Assembly (NCBI GenBank): GCA_900617975.1
Contig: UZAE01000058.1
Coordinates: forward strand, 1-44,404
DNA from: Rodentolepis nana
Taxonomy: Eukaryota; Platyhelminthes; Cestoda; Cyclophyllidea; Hymenolepididae
Direction of reading: 5' to 3'
DNA: 44,404 nucleotides
How positions within the stretch are numbered: position 1 is the first letter of the stretch; every line of letters begins with the position of its first letter. Positions 22,375-44,404 of this stretch are shown in pieces. The notes under the pieces were generated by a model. The model did not search any database. It worked only from the letters and a program-made list of their open reading frames with translations, and was not told the DNA's origin. The translations under genes and the position numbers were made by a program.

Positions 22375-22377
22375 ATA

Positions 22378-23413: not shown

Positions 23414-23600
23414 GTGTGTGCCTGTGGTGTAGTGGTTAACGTGGTCGATTGCCATATTAGAGGCATTTAGCTTGTTGCCCATCGATGCACACTTCATTGG
23501 TCAATTCCCTTTTGTGAGGGAGACGGGAATGTGTGAGTTTCTCATCGTGAAGATTTGTCGGTTCTACTCTCTCCCCATCCCCACCCACTTTGAGTGTTAT
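23414..23600 (+). repeat. tRNA-derived SINE in BCAS2 intron 2
   Basis: The head TGGTGTAGTGGTTAACG matches the tRNA D-arm and the polymerase III box A consensus (TGGTGTAGTGG, 23425-23435). A degenerate box B-like word (CATCGATGC, 23480-23488) follows at roughly the right spacing. A unique body with GAGGGAG and CATCCCCACCC follows. A related piece lies near 12725-12810. It is not a functional tRNA, because no intact acceptor stem or T-loop is seen. Confidence 0.6.
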
Positions 23601-23663
23601 AAAATGCTTTATTAAATTGAACTATCTCTATATTAAGATCACTTTATTGCTCTTTTTTCATAG

Positions 23664-23853
23664 ACGCAAAGTTCAAGAGATTAATTGGCAGCGAAAGCAG
23701 GAGCAGACGAAGGCAGGCGAAGCACTGACTCGTCTTGAGGAAGAATGGGTCAGTTTGGTTGGCAAAAACTACGAGATCGAACAGGCGATTCTGGACCTTG
23801 AACAGGAGCTGCATGCCGCTGGCGTTACCACGAATTCTAAAGAAGAAAAGTAA
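23664..23853 (+). CDS. BCAS2: BCAS2/SPF27 exon 3 with stop
   Basis: The acceptor is TTTTTTCATAG|ACGC. The exon completes an Arg codon and encodes RKVQEINWQRKQEQTKAGE and the strongly conserved WVSLVGKNYEIE, a coiled-coil C terminus used in contacts within the PRP19 complex. The stop TAA is at 23851-23853. Intron 2 (22909-23663) is 755 bp and carries a SINE. Confidence 0.95.
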
Positions 23854-24022
23854 AATTGCATTAGGATGGTGTTTGTACATATTTTGCTTGTAAATTTTCT
23901 TGTGTAGCAAAGTAATAAGGGATTTTATGGGGTTGAAAAACGTTTTTTTTTTCATTTTTTTAAAGGGTTACTGGTGCATTTCACCCAATTTTAACTAGTG
24001 GTTTCTCAAAATTGGGAGGTTT

Positions 24023-24028
24023 AATAAA
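24023..24028 (+). terminator. BCAS2 poly(A) signal AATAAA
   Basis: The canonical AATAAA lies 170 bases after the BCAS2 stop codon, a normal 3' UTR distance. It is the first such signal downstream. Confidence 0.7.
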
Positions 24029-25769: not shown

Positions 25770-25885
25770 AGCTGCGTGGACACGTCATCGCTTAACGCGT
25801 CCTCGCATGCCTGCACGCAAGGATTGGGAGGTGCGGCCCTACAGCTCTGCGTGCAGCGACCGTACAGTGGTCAATCAGTAGCCTC
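25770..25885. promoter_or_regulatory. GC-richer CpG patch, candidate promoter
   Basis: ACACGTCATCGCTTAACGCGTCC is followed by a run of CpG- and TGCGTGCAG-type words and GGTCAATCAG, unlike the flanks. The ACGTCA word is CRE-like. No exon could be attached on either strand. Confidence 0.25.
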
Positions 25886-26002
25886 AGTTTGTTTAACCTT
25901 ATCCGCCATGCTGATCATGATTAAGCTCCTTCCGTGTACACTTTTTATCCACAATATACTTACTGAATGAACGTGTTCCGTGCTATACGTATGTTTTCTC
26001 TA

Positions 26003-26080
26003 TAGCTGGGCTATAGCTTAGCTAGTTCTGGGAGTCTAGCGTAGCTGGGCTATAGCTTAGCTAGTTCTGGGAGTCTAGCT
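26003..26080 (+). repeat. Two tandem copies of a 39-bp unit
   Basis: The unit starting TAGCTGGGCTATAGCTTAGC is repeated with only the last base changed. It contains the near-palindromic words CTATAG and TTAGCTA. The near-identity points to a recent local duplication. Confidence 0.9.
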
Positions 26081-27199
26081 AGATATAGGAGAATCTGCCA
26101 CAGAGATTTCTCAGTCAGTCAGGCTTTACTAGTGTAGCAATCCGCTATAAAGCTCAGATAATAAGCATTTGATGACTAACGTTCAGACAAGACAGCTACT
26201 TTGTGCTAAAATTTTGAAGAAGACTTTACCTGTGCGAATGCCCTTCGATGCCATTGCTGTTTAATTAGGTTAGTGCAAATATTTAAACTTGAAGCACATA
26301 ACTATTTCTGGTGAAAGTTATCGAGATAGTTTAATGAAACGCGCACTCACCAAAATTCTGGCAAAAAATTTGAGATTTATAGAAAATTTCACTTCATTTT
26401 TCCCAGTTATCCAGTAAATTCTACCATTTCTAAATAATGTCAGTTGAAATTTAAATGAAGCACCTAAAATAATGAACAGGAACAATCATATAAACACCAA
26501 GTTAACTATTTAATGTTAAAATTAGCTTGATTCTCAATTTTTTAATTCAATTGACCTTAGTTTCTAAGTTTTGACCAATAATGAAACTATTAGAGTTAGT
26601 TATAATCTCTTTCTACCTCTTTCGAATGAAAAAAATGTCAAAAGCGGTCGCTGGCTCACGAACCCCTTGTCCTATTCTAGTGAAGTTATTTATAAATTTG
26701 CCCCAAATTACGCCTTTAAGTATCTCCCCCCCCCCGCCAGCTATTTAGTAATTAGTTAGTTCAAAATGCCAAGGTATATAAAAATATTCCCACTTCTCAT
26801 CCACTCGATTTGAGAACTTTTATTGCGGCTAAATACCCCACTTTCACTGTCTCCACCTAATCACAAAGATGTGGGTAAGAAACTTGTTGAGCAAATAAAA
26901 GGGTGTCTTCTTGAGCCACGAGAGAGGTGACAGTAGAGTTGACTCTTTCCCAAAATCTGGATACGTTATGACGAAATCATATTGTCCAAATAAAAAATAG
27001 ATCCAATAGAGATCTATCTCGAATCATGTTGCCGCATTCAGCAACTTAGGAGACTCAACTAAATCATCAGCCTAATAGTTAACTCAGGCGCTTTAGAAGA
27101 GCTAGAATAAAATTGCAAGGTTGAACTAATGAACGGCTTTCACTGGGAGTTATTAGATAGAAATGAACACATTTTATTAAAGAAGTATTAACCTCTCTT

Positions 27200-27380
27200 A
27201 CAGTATTCGTCTTACCATTTCTCTGCCTTTGTGTTCTTCTGCCCCTTCACATCTGTGAAGCACTCTTCTTTTCCCCACCACTTTGATGTTTCTCCTCCTC
27301 CTCTCTTTGAAGCCCGGAGTCAGCTAAAGGGCTAATGATAACTATCAAAACGCCTGCCATTTGAGATAAATAAATAAATG
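27200..27380 (+). repeat. Family A SINE-like repeat, copy 2 (5' truncated)
   Basis: It carries the 3' half of the family (CCACTTTGATGTTTCTCC, CTAAAGGGCTAATGATAAC, GCCTGCCATTTGA) and the tail ATAAATAAATAAATG, in the plus orientation. The 5' head is missing. Confidence 0.8.
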
Positions 27381-27683
27381 ATCTGGAGAAACCATTGTAT
27401 ATTCTTGGTTATCAATGAAACATTTTGATTAATGACCAAAATTTAATATTTCCGTTTTATTTATACAGGGACATTCGTTTTATGAATTTAACTTATTATT
27501 TTAATTGTTAGGGGTAATGAAATGCTATTCTCTACATAGAAATATTTTATCTATTCGCTATCGTTAATGAAATTTACATTTTATAAACGGAGTAAATAAT
27601 CGTATTCATATCATCAGAATTACAAATCACTGAGTTAATTTTAGTAAATCAAATGATACTACAACTATATTTTCACATCTCAG

Positions 27684-27704
27684 AATTTTCATGCACAGAA
27701 GGCC
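27684..27704 (+). other. 5' leader of the 27705 gene after a 3' splice site
   Basis: The tract TTTTCACATCTCAG ends at 27683, 21 bases before the start codon, and could be a trans-splice or 5' UTR intron acceptor. An out-of-frame ATG at 27691 would start an 11-codon upstream ORF that overlaps the real start. Confidence 0.35.
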
Positions 27705-27789
27705 ATGGATACAAAAATGGAATTAAGTGAACCTAATCTGGCCTATCAACTAAGCCGACTTCCTCACTATCCCCTTGCGCAACGCCAAG
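27705..27789 (+). CDS. Unrecognised protein with WD-like C terminus, exon 1
   Basis: From ATG at 27705, 28 codons (MDTKMELSEPNLAYQLSRLP ...) end in phase 1 at CCAAG|GTAGTT. The frame is joined to the long second exon by an 82-bp intron (27790-27871) ending CCCATCAAACAG. The junction forms a clean Asp codon. An open frame also runs back from exon 2 through the intron, but it lacks an ATG and gives a hydrophobic stretch that looks like intron translation. Confidence 0.65.
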
Positions 27790-27871
27790 GTAGTTATAGA
27801 TTCTTATATATCATCTTACTCATTGCGATTGATTGGAATAATTACACCTTTATTCTTTTCCCATCAAACAG

Positions 27872-29028
27872 ACGTAGCATCTAAGATTCCTTACCAGTTA
27901 ATGAATCACCGTCTTTTAGTTGGCAATGAACGAATACCACCTGGAATCTGTATGGAGGGTTTCGCCCATGATGAATTCTTTTCCATTCATTATCCTTATT
28001 ATGTTACAAAGCTTAAACTAGTTTGGAGCCATCCTAACGAACGTTTTGAAATAAACCTCATTTTTCAAAAATATTTTGACTCCCTATATGCCAAATTTTG
28101 CAAAATGTCCAATGCTCTTATAGGATTTGACTTATACGGCCTGAGAATATACAAGTTAGATGGTAAGCGCAATATAACTTTGAATAATATTTACTTAATA
28201 CTTTTACCAGATGTGGATGGGTTCACATTAGTTAGATCAATCCGTCGTCAATTGGATTTAAATTGGTTTTTGAGCTTTGCGCAGGAGGCCTCGTGGTCAA
28301 ACTGGCCAACTGTTTCAAGTGAACAGCCCTCCGATTTGAGCTATTTACTTTATAATAAAGACTTAATTTGGTGCGTTAATCCAAGCCGTGATATCGAGTT
28401 CAGCTCCCAAGAATTTCAAAGTATTTCCGGCATATCTATTAGACAAAACAGCCTGAGTAACAGATTTGATTTTGTTGCAAGTGCGTCAAATTATGATAGC
28501 CATACCAACCTCCGTATATATATAGCTGCGCATGACCAATTCGGTCTCTTTAATCTATCAGCGCCAAGGCGCCAATTTGAAGAGATTTGTTTCCCGAAAG
28601 CGGATCACAAGATAGGCTTTGTCCAATGTGTTTTGAGAGATAACGGAGAGAGAAAAGGAGTACTTGTGCAAAGAGAAAATAATACAATCGAGTTTTGGGA
28701 TGAGCGTCAACCAAAAGAGCCTTGTCTAAATATCAAAAGCCCTCTTTCTTCAGTGATTTTTACACATTTGAATCATCCAGTCGTGGATTTACCATTGCAG
28801 TCTGCGATAGCAATTCACTCACAGCATCTACGAAAGATCCAGATTTGGAGTCTTCAAACGTGTGAAATTTGCTCAGAATTGACTTATCAGGAATTTACCC
28901 CATTTATGGTTTTACCTAAAAGGTATATGCTTTTCAGGTCACAATGGAGATATTTTGGTAATGAACCATCCCCAGGAGGGCCAGTTCTTTTGTTAAATAA
29001 TGGCTTAAATTTTGAAATTTTCTATTAA
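27872..29028 (+). CDS. Unrecognised protein with WD-like C terminus, exon 2
   Basis: This is the longest open frame in the window: 385 codons ending in TAA at 29026-29028, giving a 413-residue protein with exon 1. There is no signal peptide or clear membrane segment. The second half has blade-like strand patterns, such as KGVLVQRENNTIEFWDE and LRKIQIWSLQTCE, where FWD and IWS sit as the Trp-containing ends of WD40 strands. The N-terminal half has GFDLYGLRIYKLD and LILLPDVDGF. I read it as a divergent beta-propeller, possibly an adaptor of the kind found in ubiquitin-ligase or transcription-factor complexes, but no family is recognised. It stands alone, with a CCAAT cluster about 0.8 kb downstream. 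Confidence 0.8.
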
Positions 29029-29864
29029 TAGATTACTGAAAAGGGAAATTAACAAAAAATCTTGTCTATTTTTACAATTTTTGGTTAACTATAGGGGAGA
29101 GGGGGGGGGCGAATGATAAGATCATATGTCACATTTCATAGGGTGGCATTTTACTAGTTTGGTTTTTCTTGCCCACTGCGACTTGTTATACCCTGCTTAG
29201 ATGGTTATTGTATTTGTATTTAATCATATAGAATAACAAAGTAAGAAGATATCTCACCATTGATATTCTTTTCCATTATCAGTTTAGATAAATGTAAATT
29301 TTGATGGGGGTAGTTGTAATCATGGTAGGCTAGAAGAGATTCATATTCAATCTCATTATATTTAAATGAAAATGTTAAAAATTGTGTTTTCAGGACAAAA
29401 ATCACCTCTAAAAGTTGGAAGTGTTAATTTCTTTTCCTTGAACATTTGTGAGCTATTATGAGTATCGTGCCCCATGATGTCTTGGACGTAAAATCAAAAA
29501 GGCAGCTTTCATAGCCCTAATAGGATAGTCTAATTAGATACCGGCTTCAGTCTTTCCAATCTTTTCATATTATAAAAATGAGTACTGACGAGCCAAAGAT
29601 CTATATATCACATTTTCTGTATATATAGGTTTTCATTTATTTAGCTGATACAGGTTTTAAGGGTTTAATATGTGCGTACAAGTGAGGCTATAACTGTTTC
29701 ATATGCAAATGGTAATTCTAATTTGTTTATGAAATTATTATCTTAAGAAGAAAAGAGAATTTGATCCTTTTAGAAGATATAGGTTTGTAAAAGGAAGGCG
29801 TGTGCGGATATACAATTTCACGGAATAAAAGCGTCACAGAATGCATACCAACCGGCCTTTATCT

Positions 29865-29943
29865 ATTGGTCCGTTGCATGACCAATCATATACTAGAATA
29901 TCCACTGATTGGTTAAATCTTCTAAAGCCAATCAGCATCCAAT
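29865..29943. promoter_or_regulatory. Cluster of five CCAAT/ATTGG boxes
   Basis: CCAAT on one strand or the other occurs at 29865-29869, 29882-29886, 29908-29912, 29928-29932 and 29939-29943, with spacings of 17, 26, 20 and 11 bases. NF-Y binds CCAAT, and multiple spaced boxes are a promoter hallmark. No gene start could be attached: the next supported start codon is 2.2 kb downstream, and the nearby minus-strand ORF (30139-29945) is not convincing. Confidence 0.5.
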
Positions 29944-30557
29944 GTCAATCATATAATGAAGCCACCGAATGTCTGCTTAATAAGTCAGTCTCTATTGCTC
30001 CAATGTTACTGTAATATGAGCAATTGTAACCACCGTAGAAAAGTGGACATAATATAAGATATTGCATCATTCTGGACACGATGTTCCACTTTGCGTTAAA
30101 GTGAAAAGGCTTCAGAGCCCTTTGAATTTTCACCATCATTTTATGTAGGGGAAAGTGTTAGTAATGTGCATAAAATAGTTCAGCTAAACCCCAGTTCATT
30201 TTGGGATGCTATTGATGTGAATCCTCCAATTGAATAGCTATTGATTACCACCCTAACCCAACCCTCCCCCCAAATAGAGATGAGTAAATATTAATTTCTG
30301 GTTTAATTGTCCATTAAAATAGGCTAAGCAGCATATTATGCTCCAATTTATGATCCAATAATTCCGCCTTCCCCCTGTGTGACTTTATTTTTAATGTTCG
30401 CTCATTTACTTCAAAAGTGAATATAGATATGATTGACAAAGATATCTCTGTCAAATCCCCTAATAATGATAAAAATTGCTTGAATTTTTTCTCATAAATT
30501 CAGTTGACCTTACCCAAAAGAATATGAGCTTTATATGCGGTGTTACTTTCCATATGA

Positions 30558-30863
30558 GGGGTGCGCGATAGACTTACCTCTACGTGGTGCTCCCTGCGCA
30601 ACGCAAACTCTTACGGCCAAAAAGCTTATAAACCGGCAATTAATTTCAAACTACCATGATCCGACTGTTGGCCACTTTACTGTACCCATCTTATCTTTTT
30701 ATCTACCCCTGTGTCCGTCCCTTTTACATCTGTTAGTCACTCTTTGGTTTCACCCACTCGACATTTTGTGACTTTGATGTTCCTCCCCTCTCTGAAGCCC
30801 GAAATCAACTAAAGGGCTAATTATAACTATCACAAAGCCTGTCATTTGCTAAAAATAAATACA
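30558..30863 (+). repeat. Family A SINE-like repeat, copy 3 (near full length)
   Basis: It starts with the family head GGGGTGCGCGATAGACTTAC, continues CTACGTGGTGCTCCC, and ends CTAAAGGGCTAATTATAAC with an ATAAATA-type tail, in plus orientation, about 306 bp. No tRNA-like box A/B pair, ORF or target-site duplication was recognised. Confidence 0.85.
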
Positions 30864-32049
30864 TTCTTAATGTCGTTTACCAACTCAGGAATAAATACTC
30901 AATGGTTGAAACTCTGTGAACTGATCAGCCAGAGGTATCGACTAATTCTGTTAATCAAAGAATGTTAACTTCCACAGAGTGAGCTGCATCTAACGATCGT
31001 CTTTATTGGTCGAAAAGTTTAGAATGCTTTATTGAAAAACATTTGACCTTTTTCTTTTATCTAGTTTTGGTTTGGTAAGTAGGCTACTTAAATGCTCAAC
31101 AGAAAAAATATGTCTACTAATATGCAGTGAAAGATAGTCTGAAGACGTTTGGAAACGTGCGAGCTGAGTTGTACTGAAACCAACATGAAGCCAATTACCC
31201 CTTAAATAAGAGAAAAAAACAACATATGATTTTAAATGCCAAATGTAAATCACCTACAGGCGCAAAGTTGCTACACTATGAACTGTTACGCTTGGATTTA
31301 AAGATAATAATATCGGAGCGCGAGAACACTTCTGTGTGGAAAGATTTGGTAGTAGAGTAGGGCGTTTATGACTACATGCATTAATTGAGTAACGCATAAT
31401 TTACATCGACTTCTATATGACGCATCTCTTATTTAAATTGCTTCTGGCGTTATCTGCATTGGCAATAGTATAAAATTTATCACCTGTTGCTGTCTATCTT
31501 TGAATTGGATATGCAGAAGTCCTTGGGAACAATAACTAAAATCAGCTATTTTAATTTTGTGGATGGGTTATTAACTTTATTGAGCGAAAACCACACAAGT
31601 TCAAGTGAACTAGACTAAACACGATTAATCTACATCCTTCGCAAAAGTCATTGCATAAAGTTCATATTTACCATTCACAATAAAATATTTACCTAAGTCT
31701 CTCATCTAGAATGTACAGAAATGTATTTCTTCATGATTCAACACTCTGAAGTAATTTTGCAACTTCATCAATTACAAATAACTTTCACCTCTAACGCAGC
31801 TATTCATTTGAAATACCAAGGCCTTATTTACCACGAATTTATCATTTTCAGGCAGAAGTTATAAACAATATACCGTTTTAACAAACAGTCATTTGTAAAG
31901 TCATAAACGTTCTCTAAGTTTAATTCACTTTAGAAGAATAGTCATACTTCTCAAGGTTATGGCCTGTGATTCGCCAACATTTTTGATAGAGGACTCTCGG
32001 AGTAATTGCACTAGCACAAATAAACCGAAAAAACCATACTTAACGCCGC

Positions 32050-32128
32050 GCACACCCTTTAAAATTTTTTTTCGGTAATTGCTGCTGTTAACAGCACAGA
32101 TTCGTCATTTTCTTCTTTGAGCTTCACC
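32050..32128 (+). promoter_or_regulatory. Leader of the phase-1 small-exon gene
   Basis: A T-rich run followed by CTGCTGTTAACAG (ending at 32095) could be a 3' splice site, possibly for a spliced leader. It is followed by a short pyrimidine-rich leader ending CTTCACC directly before the ATG at 32129. Confidence 0.35.
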
Positions 32129-32150
32129 ATGTCTCGTGTATCAGCAAACA
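32129..32150 (+). CDS. Small-exon gene, exon 1 (start)
   Basis: ATG TCT CGT ... encodes MSRVSAN and ends one base into the next codon at AACA|GTAAGT, a consensus donor. The 22 coding nt set phase 1 for the whole gene. The ATG follows a pyrimidine-rich leader. Confidence 0.7.
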
Positions 32151-32350
32151 GTAAGTGCCTTTTCGTATCCAAGGTTTTATGAACTCAAATCTATTCATGC
32201 CCTGGCGCAGTGAAAAAATCTTTGCAGCTTTCTTTTAGACTCCTAGATTTAATTAAATTTTTCCTCAGCTTTGATCATGCAATTAAATGCGTACAAGTAG
32301 CTGACATTTCCCCTTGTCTCTATTCTGCTTTCCTTAAAAAACTATTTTAG

Positions 32351-32407
32351 ATTTTATTGGTAAATATGTTCCTGACAGTTATTTTACCAGAAACCAAGTT
32401 GCCAATT
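32351..32407 (+). CDS. Small-exon gene, exon 2 (57 nt)
   Basis: The acceptor is ACTATTTTAG and the donor is CAATT|GTAAGT. In phase 1 it reads FIGKYVPDSYFTRNQVAN, the best candidate for a conserved ordered segment of the protein. A second acceptor (CCTGACAG at 32378) inside it would need the weaker overlapping donor GTACGA to keep phase, so the longer exon is preferred. Confidence 0.75.
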
Positions 32408-32610
32408 GTAAGTACGAAAAAAGTGGGCAAAATCCATCAAACTCTGCTTTGTTTTAATGCTTCGAAAGGCTTATTCTCAATTACTTTACTCTAAAATTTA
32501 ATAAGCGCCGAGATATTAAATTGATTATTTTAATTTTTATGACTATTACTTTATTGTTCAATGAAAAGCATATTTACTGATAACGAAACTTTATTTGCAT
32601 TTCCTTTCAG

Positions 32611-32661
32611 TAAACGTGAAGAGTGCTATCCCAACTCGACCACTCTACCGTACAGTTGAAG
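32611..32661 (+). CDS. Small-exon gene, exon 3 (51 nt)
   Basis: The acceptor TTTCCTTTCAG is strong and the donor is TGAAG|GTACGC. It reads NVKSAIPTRPLYRTVE in the inherited frame. In phase 0 it would begin with a stop codon, which independently supports phase 1. Confidence 0.75.
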
Positions 32662-32984
32662 GTACGCTATCATTGAATAAACATTGTTAACGAGTACTAA
32701 TTAATAAATGCAACGAAATTAAAATAATGATAAAATGGACTCAATGTTCGAATAATAAGATCAAAGTTAAGATTAATTACCAAGAAAGCCCTTTAAAAAT
32801 GGACTTTATATTTAAATTAGCAGTGCTTTAATATCTTTTTTTTTAAAATCGATATTTTTTTCGATTGGATTAATGAAAACATTGAGATGTAGCTCTTTGC
32901 CAAATTGTAATTCCTTTGATGACGTCATTTGACATTGAGTTATAGTCTATCATAATGATTATACTCTATTGTAACTCTCGACAG

Positions 32985-33005
32985 AAATTGATTCCGATAT
33001 CTTCG
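32985..33005 (+). CDS. Small-exon gene, exon 4 (21-nt micro-exon)
   Basis: Between CTCTCGACAG and TTCG|GTACGT, 21 nt read EIDSDIF in frame, phase 1 at both ends. It is the shortest exon of the main chain. Confidence 0.65.
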
Positions 33006-33146
33006 GTACGTAAAAAGAATTAATTGCTTAACTTTCAAATATTCTAACCGCCAATATAACCAATAACAAATGTTTCTGAAATTGCAAATAGCTCTTTAGA
33101 ATAATGCTTGCAATAAACTCTATATGTACTTTCATATATTTTTCAG

Positions 33147-33173
33147 CAAGTGTTTTAAGAAATATGCCACCTA
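33147..33173 (+). CDS. Small-exon gene, exon 5 (27-nt micro-exon)
   Basis: Between TATATTTTTCAG and CCTA|GTGAGT, both strong, 27 nt read ASVLRNMPP in frame, phase 1 at both ends. Confidence 0.7.
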
Positions 33174-33253
33174 GTGAGTGTTATAAAATCCAACACTTCT
33201 TAACTCAGCAATTAAGCAGCTATTTTTCTAACCATGAGCGAAATGATTATTAG

Positions 33254-33553
33254 ATTACCCAAGGTCGCGACTTCATAATTCAAAACAAATCTCGGCCTTC
33301 TCCCAGAGTTACCTACAAAAACAGAGAGTAGAATCGCTCCTTTCTGGATCATCTGCAAGTTCATCACGTTCTACATCGCCTGAGAGAGCATATCAACCAG
33401 TGGCAAGAACGAATCATGACAACAGTGGCTACCATGGGAGGAGATCACATCAGGGAAGACGATCACCACCAAGATATACTTCACCGAATTACAACGTTGA
33501 TAGAATGTTGGCTAGTAGCCCCTACATAAAGAACGGACAAACCGAAGCTTATC
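33254..33553 (+). CDS. Small-exon gene, exon 6 (300 nt, largest)
   Basis: Exactly 100 codons are added, ending TATC|GTAAGT in phase 1. The sequence is Ser/Arg-rich with SRSTSPERAY, GYHGRRSHQGRRSPPRY and NYNVDRMLASSPYIKNGQ. The acceptor used (GATTATTAG, 33253) is the only one that keeps phase 1. A better-looking one at 33308 (CTTCTCCCAG) would need a phase 0 partner, so the 5' boundary is less sure than the 3' one. Confidence 0.7.
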
Positions 33554-33629
33554 GTAAGTTTATGGCAAAAAATTGAAAAACGTCAATTTGCTTATTTTTT
33601 CTCTCTCTCACTTACACGTGCCAATGTAG

Positions 33630-33656
33630 AGTGTCTTGAATTTAATCAGAATTTCA
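33630..33656 (+). CDS. Candidate optional 27-nt micro-exon of the small-exon gene
   Basis: It follows a very long pyrimidine tract (TTTTTTCTCTCTCTC ... AATGTAG) and ends CTTCA|GTATTT. It reads QCLEFNQNF in frame and is phase 1 at both ends. The donor is weak, and the following intron would be 52 bp. Confidence 0.4.
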
Positions 33657-33708
33657 GTATTTTGACAAATTTGAAAAAGAGCTTAACTTGAATTGTTACT
33701 ATTTACAG

Positions 33709-33747
33709 ATAGACGAGAACTGAGCCAGCCTTCAAGGAGGATAAGTG
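33709..33747 (+). CDS. Small-exon gene, exon 7 (39 nt)
   Basis: Between TATTTACAG and AGTG|GTAATT, it reads HRRELSQPSRRIS in frame. Arg/Ser-rich like exon 6, phase 1 at both ends. Confidence 0.7.
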
Positions 33748-33817
33748 GTAATTTTAAACAAAATATTTACTGAACTGAATAATTTGTAGGAAATTTTAAA
33801 GCATATTTTTATCGAAG

Positions 33818-33868
33818 GAAAACCAGGGCATCATGGCTCAAAACCATACCTTGATGGACACAATAGAG
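33818..33868 (+). CDS. Small-exon gene, exon 8 (51 nt)
   Basis: Between TTATCGAAG and AGAG|GTAAGT, it reads GKPGHHGSKPYLDGHNR in frame. Basic, His/Gly-rich, phase 1 at both ends. A family A SINE head begins 46 bases after its donor. Confidence 0.7.
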
Positions 33869-33914
33869 GTAAGTTGGCTGATTACTTACTTAATCTCATT
33901 ATTACTTAACTAAT

Positions 33915-33949
33915 GCACACCACGTGGAGGTAAGTCTATCGTACACCCC
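33915..33949 (-). repeat. Family A SINE head fragment in intron 8 of the small-exon gene
   Basis: On the minus strand it reads GGGGTGTACGATAGACTTAC and CTCCACGTGGTG, the 5' head of the family only. In the gene's direction it supplies GTGGAG|GTAAGT. Confidence 0.7.
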
Positions 33950-34107
33950 ACTTATTCTAAAATAGAAGCCAATATTATTATTCCTTTGGTAAATTAATCA
34001 ATAATAAAAAATCAGTAATATTATCCTTAATTCCTATGTTTTTGGACGATTTTGCAAAAAAATATTTCATTTTAAACCGGGTACATCTTAATTTACCGCA
34101 TCTGCAG

Positions 34108-34283
34108 ATATAAGTAAATTTGATAAACTTTCAAGCGAAGTTAAGAAATATGAATTAACTGTCGTAGTTCCATTCTTCTTTGGAAATAACGTTGTGCACA
34201 ACCGACAACATTTTACTGTGTATGCATGGCTTTTTCTTATTACTCTTCCATTCGGAAAAAGATATGGAGTCACGTTGTTCTAG
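34108..34283 (+). CDS. Candidate alternative 3' terminal exon of the small-exon gene
   Basis: After CCGCATCTGCAG, joining from exon 8 in phase 1 gives an open frame of 58 codons (DISKFDKLSSEVKKYELT ...) with TAG at 34281-34283. A GTAAAT at 34114 could instead define a 6-nt micro-exon. Its second half is hydrophobic and unlike the rest of the protein. Confidence 0.3.
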
Positions 34284-34468
34284 CTCGCCTCATCGATATT
34301 CTGCTGTTTGCTAATGTAACTCAAATGTCGTATTATGTGTGACTCCAATTTTTTTAAGAATTACGGGCCGTTTGTTTCAAAACATGAAATATACAGCAAT
34401 CCCATTAAAACAAATAGGTGAAAATAATGAAAACGAAAGTTTGTCATTTTTGAAAGCATCGTATCAAA

Positions 34469-34788
34469 TTTATTTATTTATATCAAATGGCAGACGTTTT
34501 GATGGCTATCATTAGCCCTTTAGTTGACTTCAGGCTTCACAAAGGGGAAGGAACGTCAAAGTGAAAAAATTCGAGAGGGGGGGGGGAGGAACAGAAGAGT
34601 TTCAAAGAGGAAGTTAGAAAAGGTAGAAAAAAGGTGGGTGAGTACTGTGAAAGTGGTGGAATATGACATAGAGTGGGGTCATGGTAGTTTGAAATCAGAA
34701 GTCAACTGCCGGTTTGTAGACTTTTTTGCCGTGTGAGTATACGTTGCCCAGGGAGCACCACGTGGAGGTAAGTCTATCGCGCACCCCC
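34469..34788 (-). repeat. Family A SINE-like repeat, copy 4 (near full length)
   Basis: In minus orientation it has the head (GGGGGTGCGCGATAGACTTA), CCACGTGGTGCTCCCTGGGC, a body, the GTTATC-type 3' word region and an ATAAATAAATA tail, about 320 bp. It sits in intron 8 of the small-exon gene, antisense to it. Confidence 0.88.
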
Positions 34789-35860
34789 GTATCAAATAAT
34801 AAGACAGATCCTCAGAGGGTTTCTGATTTAAATTTAAATTTAAAAAAACAAAAAAAGCAGTTAATTTTGGGCAGATATTTTCCACAGGACGGGAAAAAAT
34901 AAAAAACCTAAAACTTTTCAAAAATTAAGAATTTTAGAATTAGTATTTACTCACTGAATCTAATATTCAACCTGACGTCTGCTTTTTAATTGATTCTTCG
35001 AATTCCTAGATAAGTTGAATACGAAAATTTGCCTTGATGAAGAACGAGCAACTTTTCTGGATATTTCATAATCTTGCCTGATAATGTCAATTGCCTCGTC
35101 ATTGATAACTTTCAAATTCAGTGTTTATTGCACGGCATATTGAGGTGGGGAATATTTCGATAGAATGAAATAATTTATTTTGAGAACATTGCAAAGTATA
35201 GTTCAGAATGACATTTATTTTATAGGTTTCAAGTCCATTAAAGGAGTACAAATAGTTACGAGAAGGCGAATTTATTCCTGATGAAGTTTTTTTGTTGTTG
35301 TGAGTGCAGTCACCATTAGCCAAGTCCAAGATAGAATGTTTCCGATAGAAACTTCACCTTAGTTTTATTGAACTTTGGACATTCTAAGTGTGGATCAAAT
35401 CAACATAGTTCAATTCACTAAAGAATATTTAATAAAATATCCGAAAAATGTTTAGGTCCATTTTATTTACACAACCAAAGAATGATATACACGATCTCAC
35501 CCCCTCCCCTTATGACAATAGTATTAATCTCGGTATATTGAAAGCTATTTATCTTCTTGTCCAAATAGATTTTAGGTAAAACATATGATTGATTTCTGTC
35601 AAAATAAGGTGCATATGGGTATTGTTAGGATTTGGAGTTCATTGAATGGGGAGGACATGATATTTTACATGTAAATTATGGAGATTTCTTTACGTTGTTC
35701 ACAGCAAAAGTCGTTCTGTGAGTTTTCTCGTAAGCAATTTTTCCAGCAACCTTTTAGTCAATGTCAGGAATCTCTTGTGATCTATTTTTAATAGGAATAT
35801 TTTGAAGCTTTTGTTCCAATATGAAATTATTGTTAGACAAAATCAATATACCCATTTTAG

Positions 35861-36052
35861 CACCATCCACGACATCCTCCTCGACGTCGCGTTCATCATC
35901 AAATTCTTCTCTCACTTCCTCAAGATCTTCAAGATCTTCATCTGCTGAATCTCTCACCTCCACCTCATCTTCAGCGTCAAAATTCACATACTCTTCATCT
36001 GAGTCCACAGATTCGAGAAAGAAGCAAGTGAGGAAACACCATAACTCTCATG
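35861..36052 (+). CDS. Small-exon gene, exon 9 (192 nt, Ser-rich)
   Basis: Between CCCATTTTAG and TCATG|GTAAGC, 64 codons read as a Ser-rich block (more than half Ser) turning basic at the end (DSRKKQVRKHHNSH). It is phase 1 at both ends. The complementary strand carries an acidic open frame starting at an ATG; the splice sites and phase favour the plus strand. Confidence 0.7.
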
Positions 36053-36915
36053 GTAAGCGAATACGTAGCATAAGTCTAACACTTATTTTTGGCTTCCAGT
36101 TAACTTAGACATAGCCTATATGCCCGTCTGCTTAATTTTCTAGTATTTATTTAAAGGAAAACTGGTATTATTATAAGATGACTAGGCGATTACAAACATG
36201 AACTTGAATATGTCCACCGAGGATTTTCTAGTTGATTCAAATTGTGGCATACTGAGAAGAGCTGGTAGGGGTACTAAGTAAAATATAACCTTGCATGTGG
36301 GTATCGGAATCTCTTAAATTAAATAAGTTAGATCGGTCCTTCAAATTTGGGCATACTCTAATATTTATTTACACAGGTTTGGATTCAATAGTTAGTAGAT
36401 TATGACTTGAAAAGGCGAAGAATACTACATTCTAAACATCTGAACTCTATAAAGCGTTCACAGTTTTCACTAACACATCTCAAAATGATAACAGTTGAAA
36501 CACACAAAATGCTAAATTTCAAATAAGTAATAGTCAATTTATTTGAAGACGGAGGTTGTTATGGAATAGAACGAGTCATTACAAACAATCAACTTTCAAT
36601 AAAGCTAGCACAGATTTCTTAAAATCTAGTGGCAAGGGATAAGTGTCTGAAGATTATTGATTTAATTAGATTTCAACCTAGGTGAAACAAATCTTTTATG
36701 AAAAAAAGAAATTATTTTTAATGAAGTGAAATATAACCATGTTTTCACTAGTTGAGTTCCGAATTTAATACATGATTTCCAGAGAAGATTTCGAAATTCA
36801 TAATTTCGTAATGGTATCTTGATGTTTTTCTACAATAAAATCGGTTAAGCAATAAAGTAAGTAAATTTAAATCTGTCTATTAGATTTCATCTCGTATCAT
36901 GTATCTTGATGACAG

Positions 36916-37151
36916 ATATTTGGAAAATGCCTCAAAAAAACGAACGATGGGCTTCGAAATCGAAAGCAAGTGAAACACAACTGAAACAACAAGCCAAGTC
37001 CTCAAAATTTTCATCAAATTTGCGAACAAAATTGGCCATCAAAGAGAATCGAATAGCCAAAGAGGTACCAGCAAGTGAAAAATGGAGAATAGATAAAGTT
37101 AACATATGGAAAGACACAAAGATTCCCCCAGAATTCCTATTAAGACCATAA
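36916..37151 (+). CDS. Candidate extra or terminal exon of the small-exon gene
   Basis: After TTGATGACAG the phase-1 frame is open and Lys/Ser/Gln-rich (DIWKMPQKNERWASKSKASE ...), matching the gene's composition. It either stops at TAA 37149-37151 after IPPEFLLRP, or leaves at a weak GTGAAA donor after 37074 as a 159-nt phase-1 exon. Confidence 0.45.
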
Positions 37152-37450
37152 AGATACCCAAACTGTAAAACCCTTTCTTGAATAGTTATGTCAGAAAATA
37201 ACTCTAAAGAATTAGAAAAAATGGAAGGATTTTTATTGCAAAATTTCCGAAATATATGTATCTTGGTGATCTTTAACTACTAATTTAATTAAATCGCTCA
37301 ATACTTTCGCACAAGTAAGAAAAATTAATAATTAACAGCCCATTTTATTATTCAAAATCGATGAAAGTTTGACTACACTTTAACAGGCTTATCAACGTTT
37401 GCGTATTTGCAACTTTGAGAGTAAATGTTCGAGCTGCATAACGGTCATAA

Positions 37451-37747
37451 TATATTCATTTATATCAAATGACAGGCTTGTTACGTCTTCGGGCTTCAGA
37501 GAGAGAGAGAGAGAGGACACCAAAGTCACAAAATGTCGAAAGGGAGAACAGAAGAGTGATTTACCAATGTATAAGAGACAGACATAAAGACAGAGAAAAT
37601 GAAAGATGAGTACTGTGGAAGCGGTGGAATATGACACAGTCGGGTCATTGTAGTTTGAAGTCAGATGGCGGTTTATAGGCTTTTGTGCTGTACTAGTAAA
37701 CATTGCCCAGGATGCACCACGTGAGAGGTAAGTCTAAAGCGTACCCC
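37451..37747 (-). repeat. Family A SINE-like repeat, copy 5 (near full length)
   Basis: A diverged minus-orientation copy of about 297 bp with a (GA)n expansion at 37498-37515 and a mutated head. It lies antisense in the intron between exons 9 and 10. Confidence 0.85.
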
Positions 37748-38487
37748 ATGTCATTATATACAAAAACAATGGTTTGAATTATAATACTTAAGGATATTTA
37801 ATCCAGTTTGGTCGAATCTATTGCCAATTTGTCTTTGGAATCGAATTTTCGTGTCTTCATTAGCAGTATATGAGATTTAAAATACAACAAAAAATGGAAT
37901 CAATAATGGTCTAATTGATTAAACTTGAATAATCTCTGATAAAACGACTTTTGATTCCTGAACAGAATGAAACGTATGAAAATACTGTTCATTGGTTTAA
38001 ACCCAAGCACTTAAACACCTCTAAATACGAATGTTTAAGCATATAATATATTCTGGTATTTTAAAGATTTAATGTTCATTAGAATTATTTTAAATGTAAT
38101 TTTACTTGAAGTGTAATGATTTTAACCAAAGTACATTGATGATATGCCGAGTTCATAGATGATAAAGTTGAAACAGTAGTACTTTACTGGATAGAGAGGG
38201 ATGGGAAAATACCCTCCTATTACACTGATTATTGATACTAACTCATGATGTGCTCCAAATAAATCAAGGCCTCCACTTTTGCTTAATATCACATACTACG
38301 CATAATCAGATAAGCAGTAGAAAGAGAAGATCCCATAATAGTGAAATCTACGTATATTTGTGCTCAACGTCAGCCAGCTGAAACTGACATTTTAGCACTT
38401 CAAACGAGGGCATCTCATTGATCTAAATTGTAAAAAGTTATGCATGCTGCAATGACTATCAGCACTTATTTATTTTTAATTAATTAG

Positions 38488-38529
38488 CTTCAAAGAAGCA
38501 GAACACCGATAAGCACACAAAGTCAAAAG
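38488..38529 (+). CDS. Small-exon gene, exon 10 (42 nt)
   Basis: Between TTAATTAATTAG and AAAAG|GTAAAA, it reads ASKKQNTDKHTKSK in frame, Lys-rich like its neighbours, phase 1 at both ends. The intron before it (36053-38487) contains a family A SINE. Confidence 0.65.
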
Positions 38530-41500
38530 GTAAAATTGTTTGTTTTAACTTGTAATCAGCCTTAATTATCTCAGGATTTAAACTAACGGGCTTTAACTTT
38601 GAATGATATTGTGCATGCTTTAGCCGTTGCAGCATAACAAAGTACTCAATCAATAATATTTTAAATTCTGCCACCCTTTTCATAATCTTTGATTTTAATT
38701 ACAAGCACTATAATTAAGGGCAGTTTAAACACCAATTTTAGAGAGCCTGCGTTTTGCTAATTATGACCTGTTGTGCCATAACCCTTTTAGTCTCTAAAAC
38801 GGACACCATACCAAAACCCAACAATAACACGAAAATAAGCAGAATGTCCCCCATTTGCAAAGACCATATACGCTAGTGCATTTTAACACTTAACAAATTT
38901 TTATAGTGATTAAAAATAATTTATCAAGTTAATTCGAGTAGAAAAAATACTCTTAACAATCAAAAATTCTCAGAAAAAGTTGTTGATTTATAAAATATGG
39001 TGTTGGTTCCACCTTTGATCTTCCTGGGGTGTTCTGGAGCGTCTAGACTATATTTGCACTGAGTCTCTTGTAGCTTGTGTTCAGTTTAATCTCACTTGAA
39101 TCCGCTGACTAAGCTAAAGTTATGGCTGTGTGTTGAGAATGAAGATTGGGTTTGAATACTAACAGAGACGCTGTTTGGTATCTTCAAAGTAGAGTTGAGA
39201 TTTCCTTCAAACATCATCCCTCTTGTGGGTACGAGGAATCAGATTTCTAAATGTGAAACATTTTTCTTTTATCAAGACCACTAAAGGTAAGTGTAGGATA
39301 AGAATAAGAGGCATCGAGACCACTTGATGACATTTATAAGCACAATTTTTTCGTCACGTTATGATTGGCGAATAGCTAAAGGAAACTGCATCGGTTTAAA
39401 AGGAGTGACATTTAACCACTTTGAATATAAATTCATATGACAAGAATACTTTCTAGATGGACTTATCAATAGCTAAAATCACAATGTGATAAATCAACGT
39501 TAGATTGAAACCATACAGATGAATTTTGAGAAGAAGTGAGTTCAACATTTTGCTTAGTCATTTCAACCATTGTTGAAGACCCTTGCATGAAGCGGCAGGT
39601 TTATCATGATCGATTTCTTAGGACGTAAACGAGTGTAGACCTAGCTGAAATGTGATTACACTACTCAAAGTAATTTATCGTTCTAACGTGGTCAGTGTCT
39701 GTCTTTTCAGAGAGCATGGTCGATTGATATCGTTATCCTGTGACGGAACATCGGAGATGATTGTTGTTTTGGGGTAGTAGGCTCTGAAATAGGTGGTTTT
39801 GAACGACCACAGACAAGGTGATTTACATCGTTACTTTTACACTCTGGTGGATGACATTCCTCTTCATTATTGTCAACTTGAAATAGGGCAGCACATTGAA
39901 GGACAAAAAATAGGAGAAATGGACAAAAGGATTATGTTATAAGTGATTAAAATGTCATGAGAATTTTCTTTCCCAATTTTTTAATTTTCTGCAAACCAGA
40001 TTCCATAGTTTTATAAAAAGGTAAACAAATCACCCCTTCTTGAGTGGCCTGAGACGTTTGGATTCTGTTATTTTAGAAATACTTAGAGAGCATAAATAAT
40101 ATATGTTTGTTACTTTTTATATCTCAATTATCTCAAAAAGAACTGTGAATTAGCCCCCTTTTAACATGCCACAATCTAATAAATGAACAACTTTTATTTA
40201 TTTGAAGATCCGCAAAATGAACCAAGTTCAGGTTTCTTAGATTAAATTTATGATTCATTTCCCCATTCTTGGAAAGATTGAATCCTCTCGGATCAATAAT
40301 TCGATGAAATCATTTAATATTATTTAATGAAAGTTTGAATACTCTATAGGATAGTGAAAAGGCTTGAAATAGGAAAGAATTCCACTATTTTGAACTGGTG
40401 ATTGCCAAACTGTACTTATATTCAACAGTAAAAGTTCTGTAAACTGTAGAATTATCCTTTGAACTGGCAAAAAAGAAGTTATTATGGGAGGAGGTGATTT
40501 AAATCGAAACAACATCTCAATTTTACTTTCAAATTCAAGTTGTTGAATATTCATTAAAAAGGAGATTTCACTGTTCTCGCATTCCAGCAGCTAAGTCACT
40601 TTCCTTCCAGGTGGATTACCGATCAATGTCTTATCCAGTGCTTATTGGATTATTGTTTAATCGGTAAAGTAAACCTTCCCACTTCAGTTCATTTCTTTAT
40701 CTGTCTAAAACGATTGTACCAATCTTACATGATAATGATTTTTTCAATTTAAGCACTTTCAATGAATTATTAAAATAAATATTCGCTTTCATAAAGTTAA
40801 GGAATTGAGTTGTTGCCTGGTTTTATGCCGATAACGTTTAAAACATCCTTCGCACCAAAATTTGGGAAAAATAAGAACGGGTAAAGAATCTGCCACCTCA
40901 AGTAACCTTTGCATATGTTCTAATTGTAACAGCAAGATTTATTTTTGTAGAATGTCCGATCAAGGAGTGAATGTTAGTAGATGAAGGAAAATTGCTAACA
41001 AAATCTAGACTTCATTACCATTTATTTATTTTAAGTCTAACAAATTACGCTTCTTCTGTTAAAACGTTCATTGCTTCTTTCTCTAATGACGTAAATATAA
41101 AACTTTTAGGATGAATAAATAAACATTTGCTCAAAATGTCCGTATTTACGGAACCGTTTTTTATTCTCTATGGCTGGTATACAATTTCGGTGATTCGTCT
41201 TCTAATGGCACGGTTAATTACAAGATTTAAAATGAAATATTCGGATAAATTTTCCTTTATTAATTTATGAATTATAGAAGCATAAGATATACGAATCACA
41301 AAAATGAGTTCTAAGGAAAGTTGTTTGTCTTATTTCACTAACATTCTTCGTTTTTTTCACGAGTTAGTCGTATTTTTCTATTTTTCAATAACGAATACAT
41401 CTTTAAGCCCTCACCTTATTGTGCTTATTACGATTTAATAAATATTTTAATCGTTCTATTTAAATAGGCTAACCGGTGTTTTTTTCAAGGTGTAGTATGA

Positions 41501-41531
41501 AAATCATGCACCTATTTTCTGAAACTTTCAG
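38530..41531. other. Intron 10 of the small-exon gene, no supported exon
   Basis: This 3.0-kb AT-rich stretch has several good-looking acceptors (for example before 40011 and 40611) whose downstream sequence either stops in phase 1 or ends in the wrong phase. No repeat of family A and no recognisable domain were seen. Confidence 0.45.
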
Positions 41532-41636
41532 ATCACCGACGTCAAAATGAAAATCGACACAAGAGCAAGAGCCCTGATCGATCGTCAAGTCGTAAAATGC
41601 ATCGTACTAAAGGGAGAAAATATCAGAGTAGAACAA
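41532..41636 (+). CDS. Small-exon gene, exon 11 (105 nt)
   Basis: The acceptor is AAACTTTCAG and the donor is ACAA|GTAATT. It reads DHRRQNENRHKSKSPDRSSS then RKMHRTKGRKYQSRT, very basic with SP and RS dipeptides, phase 1 at both ends. Without splicing, the frame stops 15 codons later. Confidence 0.7.
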
Positions 41637-41675
41637 GTAATTCTTGTATAATTCCATCTCATCCACTTCTTTAAG

Positions 41676-41738
41676 TTAAAAGAAACGAGTCCACTTCTAT
41701 GAAGAATGATGTTACTCCACCTAATTCTGGCAAAATAT
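41676..41738 (+). CDS. Small-exon gene, exon 12 (63 nt) after a 39-bp intron
   Basis: The acceptor TCCACTTCTTTAAG has a long pyrimidine tract; the donor is ATAT|GTGAGT. It reads IKRNESTSMKNDVTPPNSGK in frame. The intron before it is only 39 bp and has an in-frame stop, so its removal is needed to continue. Confidence 0.65.
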
Positions 41739-42453
41739 GTGAGTTTTCACTCTAAGCAGTGAGATAACCACCTATGCGAGCTAAATGAACTTTAATTATC
41801 AACTAATCGCATCGATGTTAACCAATTTTATTCTAACACAGCTTCAAGCTAAATATAAGGCGAATTCAAAGAAATTTAACTGTACTTTTAAGAACTAATG
41901 GGATGGAGCTCTCAATTGATATAACTATAAATGCTATTTCAGGCTTACTCTAGGAATATTGCGACGCGCACTTTTAACCGTTTCCTCAGAAATGGGACAA
42001 AGTAGAGACAAGTTAATAAATGACAATACATTCAAAAATAAAGAAGCCCAAACTGATTGAATGGAAGATTTTATGAGCTCAAGAGCAAGATGGTATCTTT
42101 ATTTTCGCCGTCTTTAATCTCCAATATTTAAAATTTATTGAAATTAATTACTACCTCATTCAGCTTCCGAAAGCAATAATTATGAATGCAGTCATGAAAA
42201 AATTTCACTTTAAAACTACTAAATATATTGCTCAATGACAATGAGTAAGGAAACAATTGTAATTTGAATTATGAGAATATAATTTTTGAATTTACTTTCT
42301 GCATTATTTGCAAAATTTCATCGTCAAAATTCTTGGAAACTAAACTAATGCTCTGAAGAAGATATCTTTCGTTGTTGAAAGTAAGGACGTTTACACTTGC
42401 GGCTGAAACATATGAATTTCAATGGAAAATCAAAGTGCTTTTTAATTTTGCAG

Positions 42454-42468
42454 TGATGTACTCTGAAA
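42454..42468 (+). CDS. Candidate 15-nt micro-exon of the small-exon gene
   Basis: TTTTTAATTTTGCAG is a strong acceptor; 15 nt later lies AAA|GTGAAT. It reads LMYSE in the running frame and is phase 1 at both ends. If the donor is not used, the frame stops at once (TAA). Confidence 0.3.
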
Positions 42469-42949
42469 GTGAATAAGTTTCTCGAAAGCGCATTTACTTC
42501 TTCGAAAAAGTTGGAAATAATCTAAAGTTTAGCGTGATTCCTAAATACTTATCAAGAACTCAAGAGACATTTCTTTTCTACAAGGTGTAAAAACGAATAA
42601 ATAAATAAGTTTTCCACACATAAAATAGAATTTTTTGGCATTATACGATTATCGATTCATGTAGTTCATATTTTACAATAAACAAGTGGATTGGCTTCAT
42701 TCCTGACTTGCTTCAAACAGCTTATCAAGATAGCCGTATATTCTATTACCTAATCCATCCAATATGAATCTACTTTTATAGAAGGTATAAATGACTCTAA
42801 CGAATTTTTAGTTCAAAAATATATATTAACTACTATTAATAAAATTCAACTTGACAAATAGGTTTAAAATAAACGTAACTAGCAGCCATAAAAATCGACA
42901 AATTCATTCAGTAAATCACCTAAATCGCAATCTAAATCTATTTAATTAG

Positions 42950-43012
42950 CAAAGGAACCCGTAAAATTGGAGAAAAAAGTTACATCGACTTCAATGCCTA
43001 GGAACAACAAAG
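42950..43012 (+). CDS. Small-exon gene, exon 13 (63 nt)
   Basis: Between TATTTAATTAG and CAAAG|GTAATT, it reads SKEPVKLEKKVTSTSMPRNN in frame, Lys/Ser-rich and phase 1 at both ends. Confidence 0.65.
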
Positions 43013-43098
43013 GTAATTTCAAGGCGGATTGTCTTAAAGATAAATATCAATACTTACAAACATTTGAAAGTTATTTTTTTAAATTCACCCTACTTTAG

Positions 43099-43151
43099 AT
43101 GGCAATACTGATGACTACACCTGCAAAAAATGTAGGTCTAAAATGAACTAA
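43099..43151 (+). CDS. Small-exon gene, exon 14 with stop
   Basis: After CCTACTTTAG the frame reads DGNTDDYTCKKCRSKMN and stops at TAA 43149-43151. The paired cysteines (CKKC) could bind metal with a partner or form a disulphide. An AATAAA-type signal lies near 43292. Another 3' end using exons at 43691 and 43842 is also possible. Confidence 0.6.
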
Positions 43152-43690
43152 CCACCAAAATGCTACTAAAATAATGCCAATTACAGACAAAACGGCATAC
43201 CCTAATAACCCTTCACCTTTGTCACTGTCCACAAAGAAATGAGAAACTTTTTAACATTATAACCAGAGAGAATGTCATCAGCCACAAACAAAATAAAGAT
43301 ATTAAAAACCATACTCTAGATAACATTTATAATTAATACAGACAAAATGAAATAAACAAATAAACTGTTACCATGCTAGGTGGTCACTTGAAGCCTTTGA
43401 ATTTTGAGCATGGTAAGCGACTAACTATGAATTTACCGACCAAAACAAAATTTTAATCAGAGAAATTTTAAACTACAAATAACTTTCCACTCACTAATTC
43501 CTTCTATTTTTCTATGCAAAAGGCAAACTAATAACAATTTTCACTGAAAGCCAAATTTGATTAAAAAATTAATACTTCATTTTATTAACTCTAGATGAAA
43601 GGAAACAAAAACATTCCACAAAGAAAAGTATGCACTTTTCAGTTTTAAATGAATAATTTTTACCATAAATTTACCTCACTTTTTCCTCAG

Positions 43691-43723
43691 GCACCTTAAA
43701 TAAGAATTCTCAACCAAGTAAAA
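43691..43723 (+). CDS. Candidate micro-exon of an alternative 3' end (27 or 33 nt)
   Basis: TTTTTCCTCAG is one of the best acceptors in the region. Two donors, after 43717 (GTAAAA) and 43723 (GTACGT), give 27 or 33 nt, both phase 1 (GTLNKNSQP, plus SK). It would follow exon 13 when exon 14 is skipped. Confidence 0.4.
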
Positions 43724-43841
43724 GTACGTTGTTCTTTTAAAGCACAGCAATTATTAATTATATTAATTTATCCTATTCTAGTAGTTTTATCAATTTTTCA
43801 TGCTTAAGAGTGATTGATTTAATTGTTCAATTTTTACATAG

Positions 43842-44070: not shown

Positions 44071-44076
44071 AATAAA
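44071..44076 (+). terminator. AATAAA poly(A) signal, possible end of the small-exon gene
   Basis: A canonical signal lies 11 bases after the stop of the candidate terminal exon. The distance is short but workable for a compact 3' UTR. Confidence 0.35.
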
Positions 44077-44343: not shown

Positions 44344-44404
44344 TATTTATTTATATCAAATGGCAGGCGTCTTGATGGTTATCATTAGCCCTTTAGTTGA
44401 CTTC
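44344..44404 (-). repeat. Family A SINE-like repeat, copy 6 (cut by the window edge)
   Basis: The 3' end of the family (tail plus TATCAAATGGCAGGCGTCTT and TTAGCCCTTTAGTTGACTTC as read on the plus strand) lies in minus orientation and runs off the right end. Confidence 0.8.

What the first reader, a model, noticed from the sequence alone, without database searches (positions are those of the whole stretch)
32129..43151. A hidden gene built entirely from phase-1, frame-neutral small exons
Fourteen exons, invisible to ORF calling, chain together with all 13 introns in phase 1. All 12 internal exons are multiples of three (21 to 300 nt), and the joined frame is open for 361 codons with consistent Ser/Arg/Lys-rich composition. 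Such symmetric exons define micro-exon genes of flatworms, which make variant proteins by skipping. Those usually encode secreted proteins, whereas this one has no signal peptide and an SR-like disordered body. It may be a non-secreted, possibly nuclear, relative of that architecture, or an unrelated gene that evolved the same design.
Basis: partly seen in the sequence, partly recalled or inferred. Interest (0 to 1): 0.85.

Follow-up and report, generated by a model that had tools for sequence, protein, structure and literature searches.

The report
Tapeworm micro-exon gene lacking secretion signal
This is a real tapeworm gene chopped into many small exons, nearly all of which can be left out without breaking the reading frame; the design is known from secreted flatworm proteins, but this protein shows no sign of being secreted.

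Summary
The gene is real. The window is a contig of the tapeworm Rodentolepis (Hymenolepis) nana. Exon 7 is 3 nt longer. The 'last' exon is a 33-nt micro-exon followed by two more 33-nt exons and the true last exon. The corrected chain has 17 exons and 393 codons plus stop, all 16 introns in phase 1. Models in H. microstoma and H. diminuta omit different exons in frame.

By a published structural rule (PMC7653826) it is a micro-exon gene: 12 of 17 exons qualify, longest run 5. It fails two traits stated for schistosome MEGs: no N-terminal hydrophobic signal (hydropathy proxy), and micro-exons give only 513 of 1182 coding nt. Three protein searches matched only hymenolepidids. Best reading: an intracellular, mostly disordered protein with skippable segments and two alternative ends. 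Splicing and location are inferred; no RNA was available.

The parts
32129..32150 (+). Exon 1 (coding part, ATG), 22 nt, leaves in phase 1
   Evidence: P0001 and P0002 N-termini
32351..32407 (+). Exon 2, 57 nt micro-exon, phase 1-1 (IGKYVPDSYFTRNQV)
   Evidence: weak acceptor score -3.2
32611..32661 (+). Exon 3, 51 nt micro-exon, phase 1-1
32985..33005 (+). Exon 4, 21 nt micro-exon, phase 1-1
33147..33173 (+). Exon 5, 27 nt micro-exon, phase 1-1
33254..33553 (+). Exon 6, 300 nt, phase 1-1; best conserved block (contains VDRMLASSPY)
   Evidence: tblastn P0002 E=1e-38; weak acceptor score -4.0
33709..33747 (+).
   Evidence: P0001 and P0002 read RRISG
33818..33868 (+). Exon 8, 51 nt micro-exon, phase 1-1
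   Evidence: diverged or absent in the H. diminuta models
35861..36052 (+). Exon 9, 192 nt, phase 1-1, serine-rich
   Evidence: tblastn P0002 E=4e-22
36916..37151 (+). Exon 9b, alternative last exon with its own stop, entered in phase 1; tail ends KEVPASEKWRIDKVNIWKDTKIPPEFLLRP
   Evidence: H. diminuta P0004, 55% identity over 71 residues, E=1.5e-19; junction 9-9b gap-free with identical joint residue
38488..38529 (+). Exon 10, 42 nt micro-exon, phase 1-1
   Evidence: in P0002; not in P0003
41532..41636 (+). Exon 11, 105 nt, phase 1-1
   Evidence: in P0003; not in P0002
41676..41738 (+). Exon 12, 63 nt micro-exon, phase 1-1, after a 39-nt intron
   Evidence: in P0003; not in P0002
42950..43012 (+). 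Exon 13, 63 nt micro-exon, phase 1-1
   Evidence: in P0002
43099..43131 (+). Exon 14, 33 nt micro-exon, phase 1-1 (reader took it as terminal, to 43151)
   Evidence: P0002 continues past it; junction 14-15 gap-free
43380..43412 (+). Exon 15, 33 nt micro-exon, phase 1-1 (missed by reader)
   Evidence: P0002 GRIKPLYYEY against GHLKPLNFEH
43595..43627 (+). Exon 16, 33 nt micro-exon, phase 1-1 (missed by reader)
   Evidence: P0002 DEKKQKPYAKK against DERKQKHSTKK
43691..43740 (+). Exon 17, terminal coding part, 50 nt to stop TAA
   Evidence: P0002 SILNNNSQPSR against STLNKNSQPSK
44071..44076 (+). AATAAA, first after the stop; possible polyadenylation signal
   Evidence: sequence; not tested

Best explanation
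A single-copy, protein-coding gene of Rodentolepis nana with orthologues in Hymenolepis microstoma and H. diminuta. It has 17 coding exons in the long form plus one alternative last exon, and every intron sits in phase 1. Because of that, 134 of the 136 possible forward joins between two exons keep the frame and make no stop at the joint. The protein is mostly low-complexity (Ser, Arg, Lys), without a hydrophobic leader, and probably intracellular and disordered after a more ordered N-terminus. Most likely mechanism (inferred): a constant N-terminal part and exon 6 carry the binding function, while the small exons behind add or drop short basic or Ser-rich segments that tune interactions or phosphorylation, and choice of last exon (9b or 17) gives two different C-termini. 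Shown here: exon chain, phases, conservation, both ends encoded. Inferred: that the isoforms are made, where the protein sits, and what it binds.
For: Order-preserving match of P0002 (69.7% identity, 14 of 14 junctions gap-free, joint residue identical at 9 of 14) and of the H. diminuta models P0003 and P0004. Omissions in those models fall on exon boundaries: 10-13 in H. microstoma; 9-11, 2-6, 6-9 and 9-9b in H. diminuta. All 16 introns phase 1; 2 of 136 joins make a stop, 2-4 and 2-8. One locus in the genome: 7 of 9 matches at E<=1 are exons of this gene, the other two have E=0.28 and 0.33. Highest 12-residue hydropathy starting in residues 1-30 is 0.53, against 2.68 for the MEG consensus motif printed in PMC7653826. 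Charge-hydropathy on the disordered side for the whole and for residues 61-393. AlphaFold2 of P0002: mean pLDDT 46.5, no residue at 70 or more.
Against: No RNA evidence was available for any junction; P0001-P0004 are database proteins whose experimental support I could not see, and P0001 and P0003 end in what looks like intron read-through. Junctions 10-11 and 12-13 appear in no model, so the full 17-exon form may not exist. Skipping of exon 3 alone (2-4) would create a stop. Residues 1-60 fall on the ordered side. The AlphaFold2 alignment had only 4 sequences, so a poor model is weak evidence of disorder. Exon 8 and its junctions fit the H. diminuta models badly.
Confidence: 0.7

Rival explanations
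1. It is an ordinary MEG of the secreted kind whose true first exon, with the signal peptide, lies upstream and has been missed.
For: MEG first exons are short and hard to find (PMC10526429 passages); a third of MEG proteins in one study were recognised by little except a signal peptide (PMC4671649 passages).
Against: P0001, P0002 and P0004 all begin at the same methionine and P0002 was modelled in a different genome; the composition is basic and Ser-rich with no hydrophobic stretch.
Confidence: 0.12
2. A splicing-associated nuclear SR-related protein that happens to have phase-1 exons; micro-exon architecture carries no regulatory meaning.
For: Ser+Arg reach 62% of a 50-residue stretch; basic tails.
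Against: At most 7 RS/SR dipeptides in 50 residues, below the usual RS-domain demand (recalled); no RRM or other Pfam domain; no solved-structure match; exon-precise omissions differ between species models.
Confidence: 0.2
3. A HYLS1-like centriole or cilium protein, as the UniRef name of the H. diminuta homologue says (HYLS1_C domain-containing).
For: The name attached to P0004, whose tail corresponds to exon 9b.
Against: P0004 and both 9b-type tails give no HYLS1_C match in the Pfam library used; the only HYLS1_C match in the R. nana genome is elsewhere, contig C2476 (22.3 bits; 23.6 bits, E=8.9e-5; both below the 27-bit cut-off).
Confidence: 0.04
4. Chance: a skilled reader can thread open phase-1 fragments through any AT-rich intron sequence.
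Confidence: 0.01

Closest known systems
Micro-exon genes (MEGs) of parasitic flatworms, structural sense (PMC7653826: 52 reported in Hymenolepis microstoma)
   Same: At least 7 exons, at least half of them micro-exons (<70 nt, divisible by three), run of at least 4; here 12 of 17 and a run of 5. Same family of tapeworms.
   Different: Whether this gene's H. microstoma orthologue is among the 52 could not be checked (supplements not readable here). No hydrophobic leader; three exons of 105-300 nt carry much of the protein.
Schistosome MEGs as first defined (secreted or membrane-anchored; PMC4350168, PMC10526429)
   Same: Symmetric small exons allowing in-frame omission; low-complexity, largely disordered product.
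   Different: PMC4350168 states that all MEG products have a signal peptide and most of the coding region is micro-exons; neither holds here (513 of 1182 nt). No sequence homologue among them was returned.
Schistosoma mansoni VAL-6 (group 2, non-secreted, with a MEG-like stretch; PMC4350168 passage)
   Same: Precedent for symmetric micro-exons in a gene of a protein predicted intracellular.
   Different: VAL-6 is a composite with a folded VAL part; no VAL or other Pfam domain was found here.
SR and SR-related splicing proteins
   Same: Ser/Arg-rich low-complexity body.
   Different: No RRM found; few RS/SR dipeptides.

Membership tests
Micro-exon gene, structural rule of PMC7653826 | At least seven exons | tested here: met
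   17 coding exons; 15 in the form that matches P0002
[quoted passage not shown]
   12 of 17; 11 of 15 in the P0002-like form
[quoted passage not shown]
   Exons 2-5 (4) and 12-16 (5)
Schistosome MEG (PMC4350168, PMC10526429 passages) | N-terminal signal peptide | tested here: not met
   Hydropathy proxy only, no SignalP: best 12-mer starting in residues 1-30 is 0.53 against 2.68 for a MEG consensus
Schistosome MEG (PMC4350168 passage) | Most of the coding region made of very small symmetric exons | tested here: not met
   513 of 1182 nt, 43%
Schistosome MEG (PMC4671649 passage) | Two long 5' and 3' flanking exons around the micro-exons | tested here: inconclusive
   Coding parts of first and last exon are 22 and 50 nt; untranslated parts unknown
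Schistosome MEG | Exon skipping demonstrated in transcripts | not testable with these tools
   No RNA data; only in-frame omissions between protein models
SR protein family | At least one RNA recognition motif | tested here: not met
   No RRM in Pfam scans of P0001-P0004, of residues 1-159, or of exon 9 plus 9b; exons 10-17 of R. nana were not scanned as such, their H. microstoma counterparts 10, 13-17 were, within P0002
SR protein family | RS domain (at least 50 residues rich in RS/SR dipeptides; definition recalled) | tested here: not met
   At most 7 RS/SR dipeptides in 50 residues
HYLS1 | HYLS1_C domain (PF15311) | tested here: not met
   No match in P0004 (E<=1) or in either 9b-type tail (E<=10, HMMER filters on); the sole genome match is on C2476

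The most novel reading that the evidence does not exclude
A hymenolepidid-restricted intracellular micro-exon gene: the flatworm micro-exon design, thought of as a device for varying secreted proteins, here serves an internal disordered protein, with entirely phase-1 introns (16 of 16), almost unrestricted exon joining and two mutually exclusive C-termini (CKKCG..KPL tail from exons 14-17, or WKDTKIP tail from exon 9b). It would mean the design is a general protein-variation mechanism of these worms and not tied to the host interface.
Probability: 0.45. Interest if true: 0.6.

Novelty: new variant of a known kind. Interest (0 to 1): 0.42.

Why it matters
Micro-exon genes are often left out or truncated by annotation, and in print they are almost always discussed as secreted, host-facing proteins. 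A conserved single-copy gene with the same symmetric exon design but no leader lets one ask whether the design evolved for host interaction or for making variants of any disordered protein. It also gives a worked example in which a public gene model stops about halfway (202 of about 393 codons) because small exons were missed.

Tried and rejected
HYLS1: suggested by the UniRef name of P0004; rejected by Pfam scans and by a better candidate elsewhere in the genome. SR protein: rejected as a family claim on dipeptide counts and lack of an RRM. Distant relatives: N-terminal search (P0002 residues 1-95) gave 2 proteins among 24 candidates, tail search (P0004 residues 190-271) gave only P0004 among 5 candidates, whole-chain search gave 4 proteins among 7989 scored; none from Taenia, Echinococcus or others, but the search needs shared 5-residue words, so diverged relatives could be missed. 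Solved structures: no match for the family alignment. H. diminuta insert KNELHKSK... (P0003) sought in intron 7 to intron 8 DNA (33749-35860): best score 28.0 against shuffle mean 27.1 and maximum 40, so not found. AlphaFold2: no confident fold, so no fold search was run. RNA families and tRNAs: none in the window. A comparison of P0003 was in the wrong frame through my error and was redone. A chance control stopped with an error because no shuffle gave a chain at its stricter acceptor threshold; it was rerun with a laxer one and extended. A first translation with a wrong exon-12 start had stops, corrected.

Not done: SignalP or a dedicated disorder predictor (not on hand), dN/dS (no DNA of the relatives on hand), RNA mapping, background intron-phase frequencies of this genome.

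Full report
Source. The 202-aa protein P0001, named as an unnamed product of Rodentolepis nana with longest contig 44404 bases, is 189 of 189 identical to exons 1-8 here. The window is the whole contig C58 of a 107-Mb assembly. The tapeworm is therefore R. nana (syn. Hymenolepis nana).

The 14 exons chain as claimed: phase 1 throughout, 12 internal exons divisible by three, 360 residues plus stop. In the three window regions that do not overlap the gene the highest value on either strand is 43.0; the fourth region (24001-36200) overlaps it and gives 81.7 in phase 1.

Homology. The whole-chain search returned four proteins: P0001, P0002 (H. microstoma, 'expressed conserved protein', 350 aa), P0003 and P0004 (H. 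diminuta). Against the exons that it uses (1-10, 13-17), P0002 has 235 of 337 identical residues and no gap within four residues of any of the 14 junctions; the codon that spans the junction gives the same residue at 9 of 14. The other four (7-8, 14-15, 15-16, 16-17) I corrected or found with P0002. P0003 supports 4-5, 5-6, 6-7, 9-11 and 11-12, and fits exon 8 badly; P0004 supports 1-2, 2-6, 6-9 and 9-9b. In all, 14 of the 16 consecutive junctions of the full chain are seen in some model; 10-11 and 12-13 are not.

Corrected gene. Coding exon lengths: 22, 57, 51, 21, 27, 300, 39, 51, 192, 42, 105, 63, 63, 33, 33, 33, 50. All 16 introns are in phase 1; they are 39 to 3002 nt long. Of 136 forward joins between two exons, 134 make no stop at the joint; 2-4 and 2-8 do. 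Exon 9b (36916-37151) is entered in phase 1 and ends the protein with a tail that is 55% identical to the H. diminuta tail over 71 residues, with the stretch EKWRIDKVN.WKDTKIP kept.

Protein. 393 residues, 78 Ser and 76 Lys+Arg. No Pfam family above its cut-off and no solved-structure match. No hydrophobic leader by hydropathy. Charge-hydropathy puts the whole, and residues 61-393, on the disordered side, and residues 1-60 on the ordered side. AlphaFold2 on P0002 with four sequences: mean pLDDT 46.5, 0 of 350 residues at 70 or more, one longer helix at 42-55; with so few sequences this says little. RS/SR dipeptides number 18, at most 7 in 50 residues. One locus in the genome.

Known kinds. PMC7653826 (passages) defines MEGs by structure and reports 52 in H. 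microstoma; the gene here meets all three of its conditions. PMC4350168 (passages) says that all MEG products have a signal peptide and that most of the coding region is micro-exons; neither holds here. It also describes VAL-6, a non-secreted group-2 VAL with a MEG-like part, so the combination has a precedent. PMC10526429, PMC5825161 and PMC4671649 (passages) likewise tie schistosome MEGs to secretion. The first MEG paper (PMC2909574) is not held. In the search listings I saw no title or abstract start on a non-secreted tapeworm MEG; these are listings only and the library lacks most subscription journals.

Reading. Best supported: a lineage-restricted gene for an intracellular, largely disordered protein whose small exons can be left out in frame and which has two possible ends. 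Exon chain, phases, conservation and both ends are shown; use of the alternatives, place in the cell and binding partners are inferred. It fits the structural class MEG and fails two traits of the classical schistosome class, so I call it a new variant of a known kind.

Noticed in passing
window 34440-34800 (intron 8), 37500-37730 (intron 9), 30558-30865 (upstream, other strand), 44344-44404 (contig end): A dispersed repeat of about 320 bp, 88-92% alike among the genome copies scored over most of its length (40 of 8808 first-look candidates scored); it ends in a donor-like GAGGTAAGTC. It makes up part of the two long introns.
   Followed up: partly
L004:1411-1662 minus strand (contig C2476): A likely HYLS1 exon of R. 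nana (SDPVSLWRMYNSQWERQ..ERALRWSVKAAM), HYLS1_C 23.6 bits, below the curated cut-off of 27.
   Followed up: partly
window 22375-23850, + strand: BCAS2 (SPF27) gene, at least two exons (Pfam E=8e-28 and 2e-15).
   Followed up: no
window 27754-29028, + strand: A 424-codon open frame without a Pfam, PADLOC or solved-structure match; long for this genome region and possibly one exon of a conserved gene.
   Followed up: partly
window 33744-33749: Tandem donor sites GTG|GTA 3 nt apart at the end of exon 7; both would keep the frame.
   Followed up: no
L002 (contig C1797): COX1 match with 7 in-frame TGA, as expected if TGA is read as tryptophan in flatworm mitochondria (code recalled).
   Followed up: no
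window 33869-33907 and 41739-41755: P0001 ends by reading through the exon-8 donor, and P0003 ends by reading through the matching exon-12 donor (residues CEFFR; the window reads CEF there): truncated models, or intron-retention forms.
   Followed up: partly
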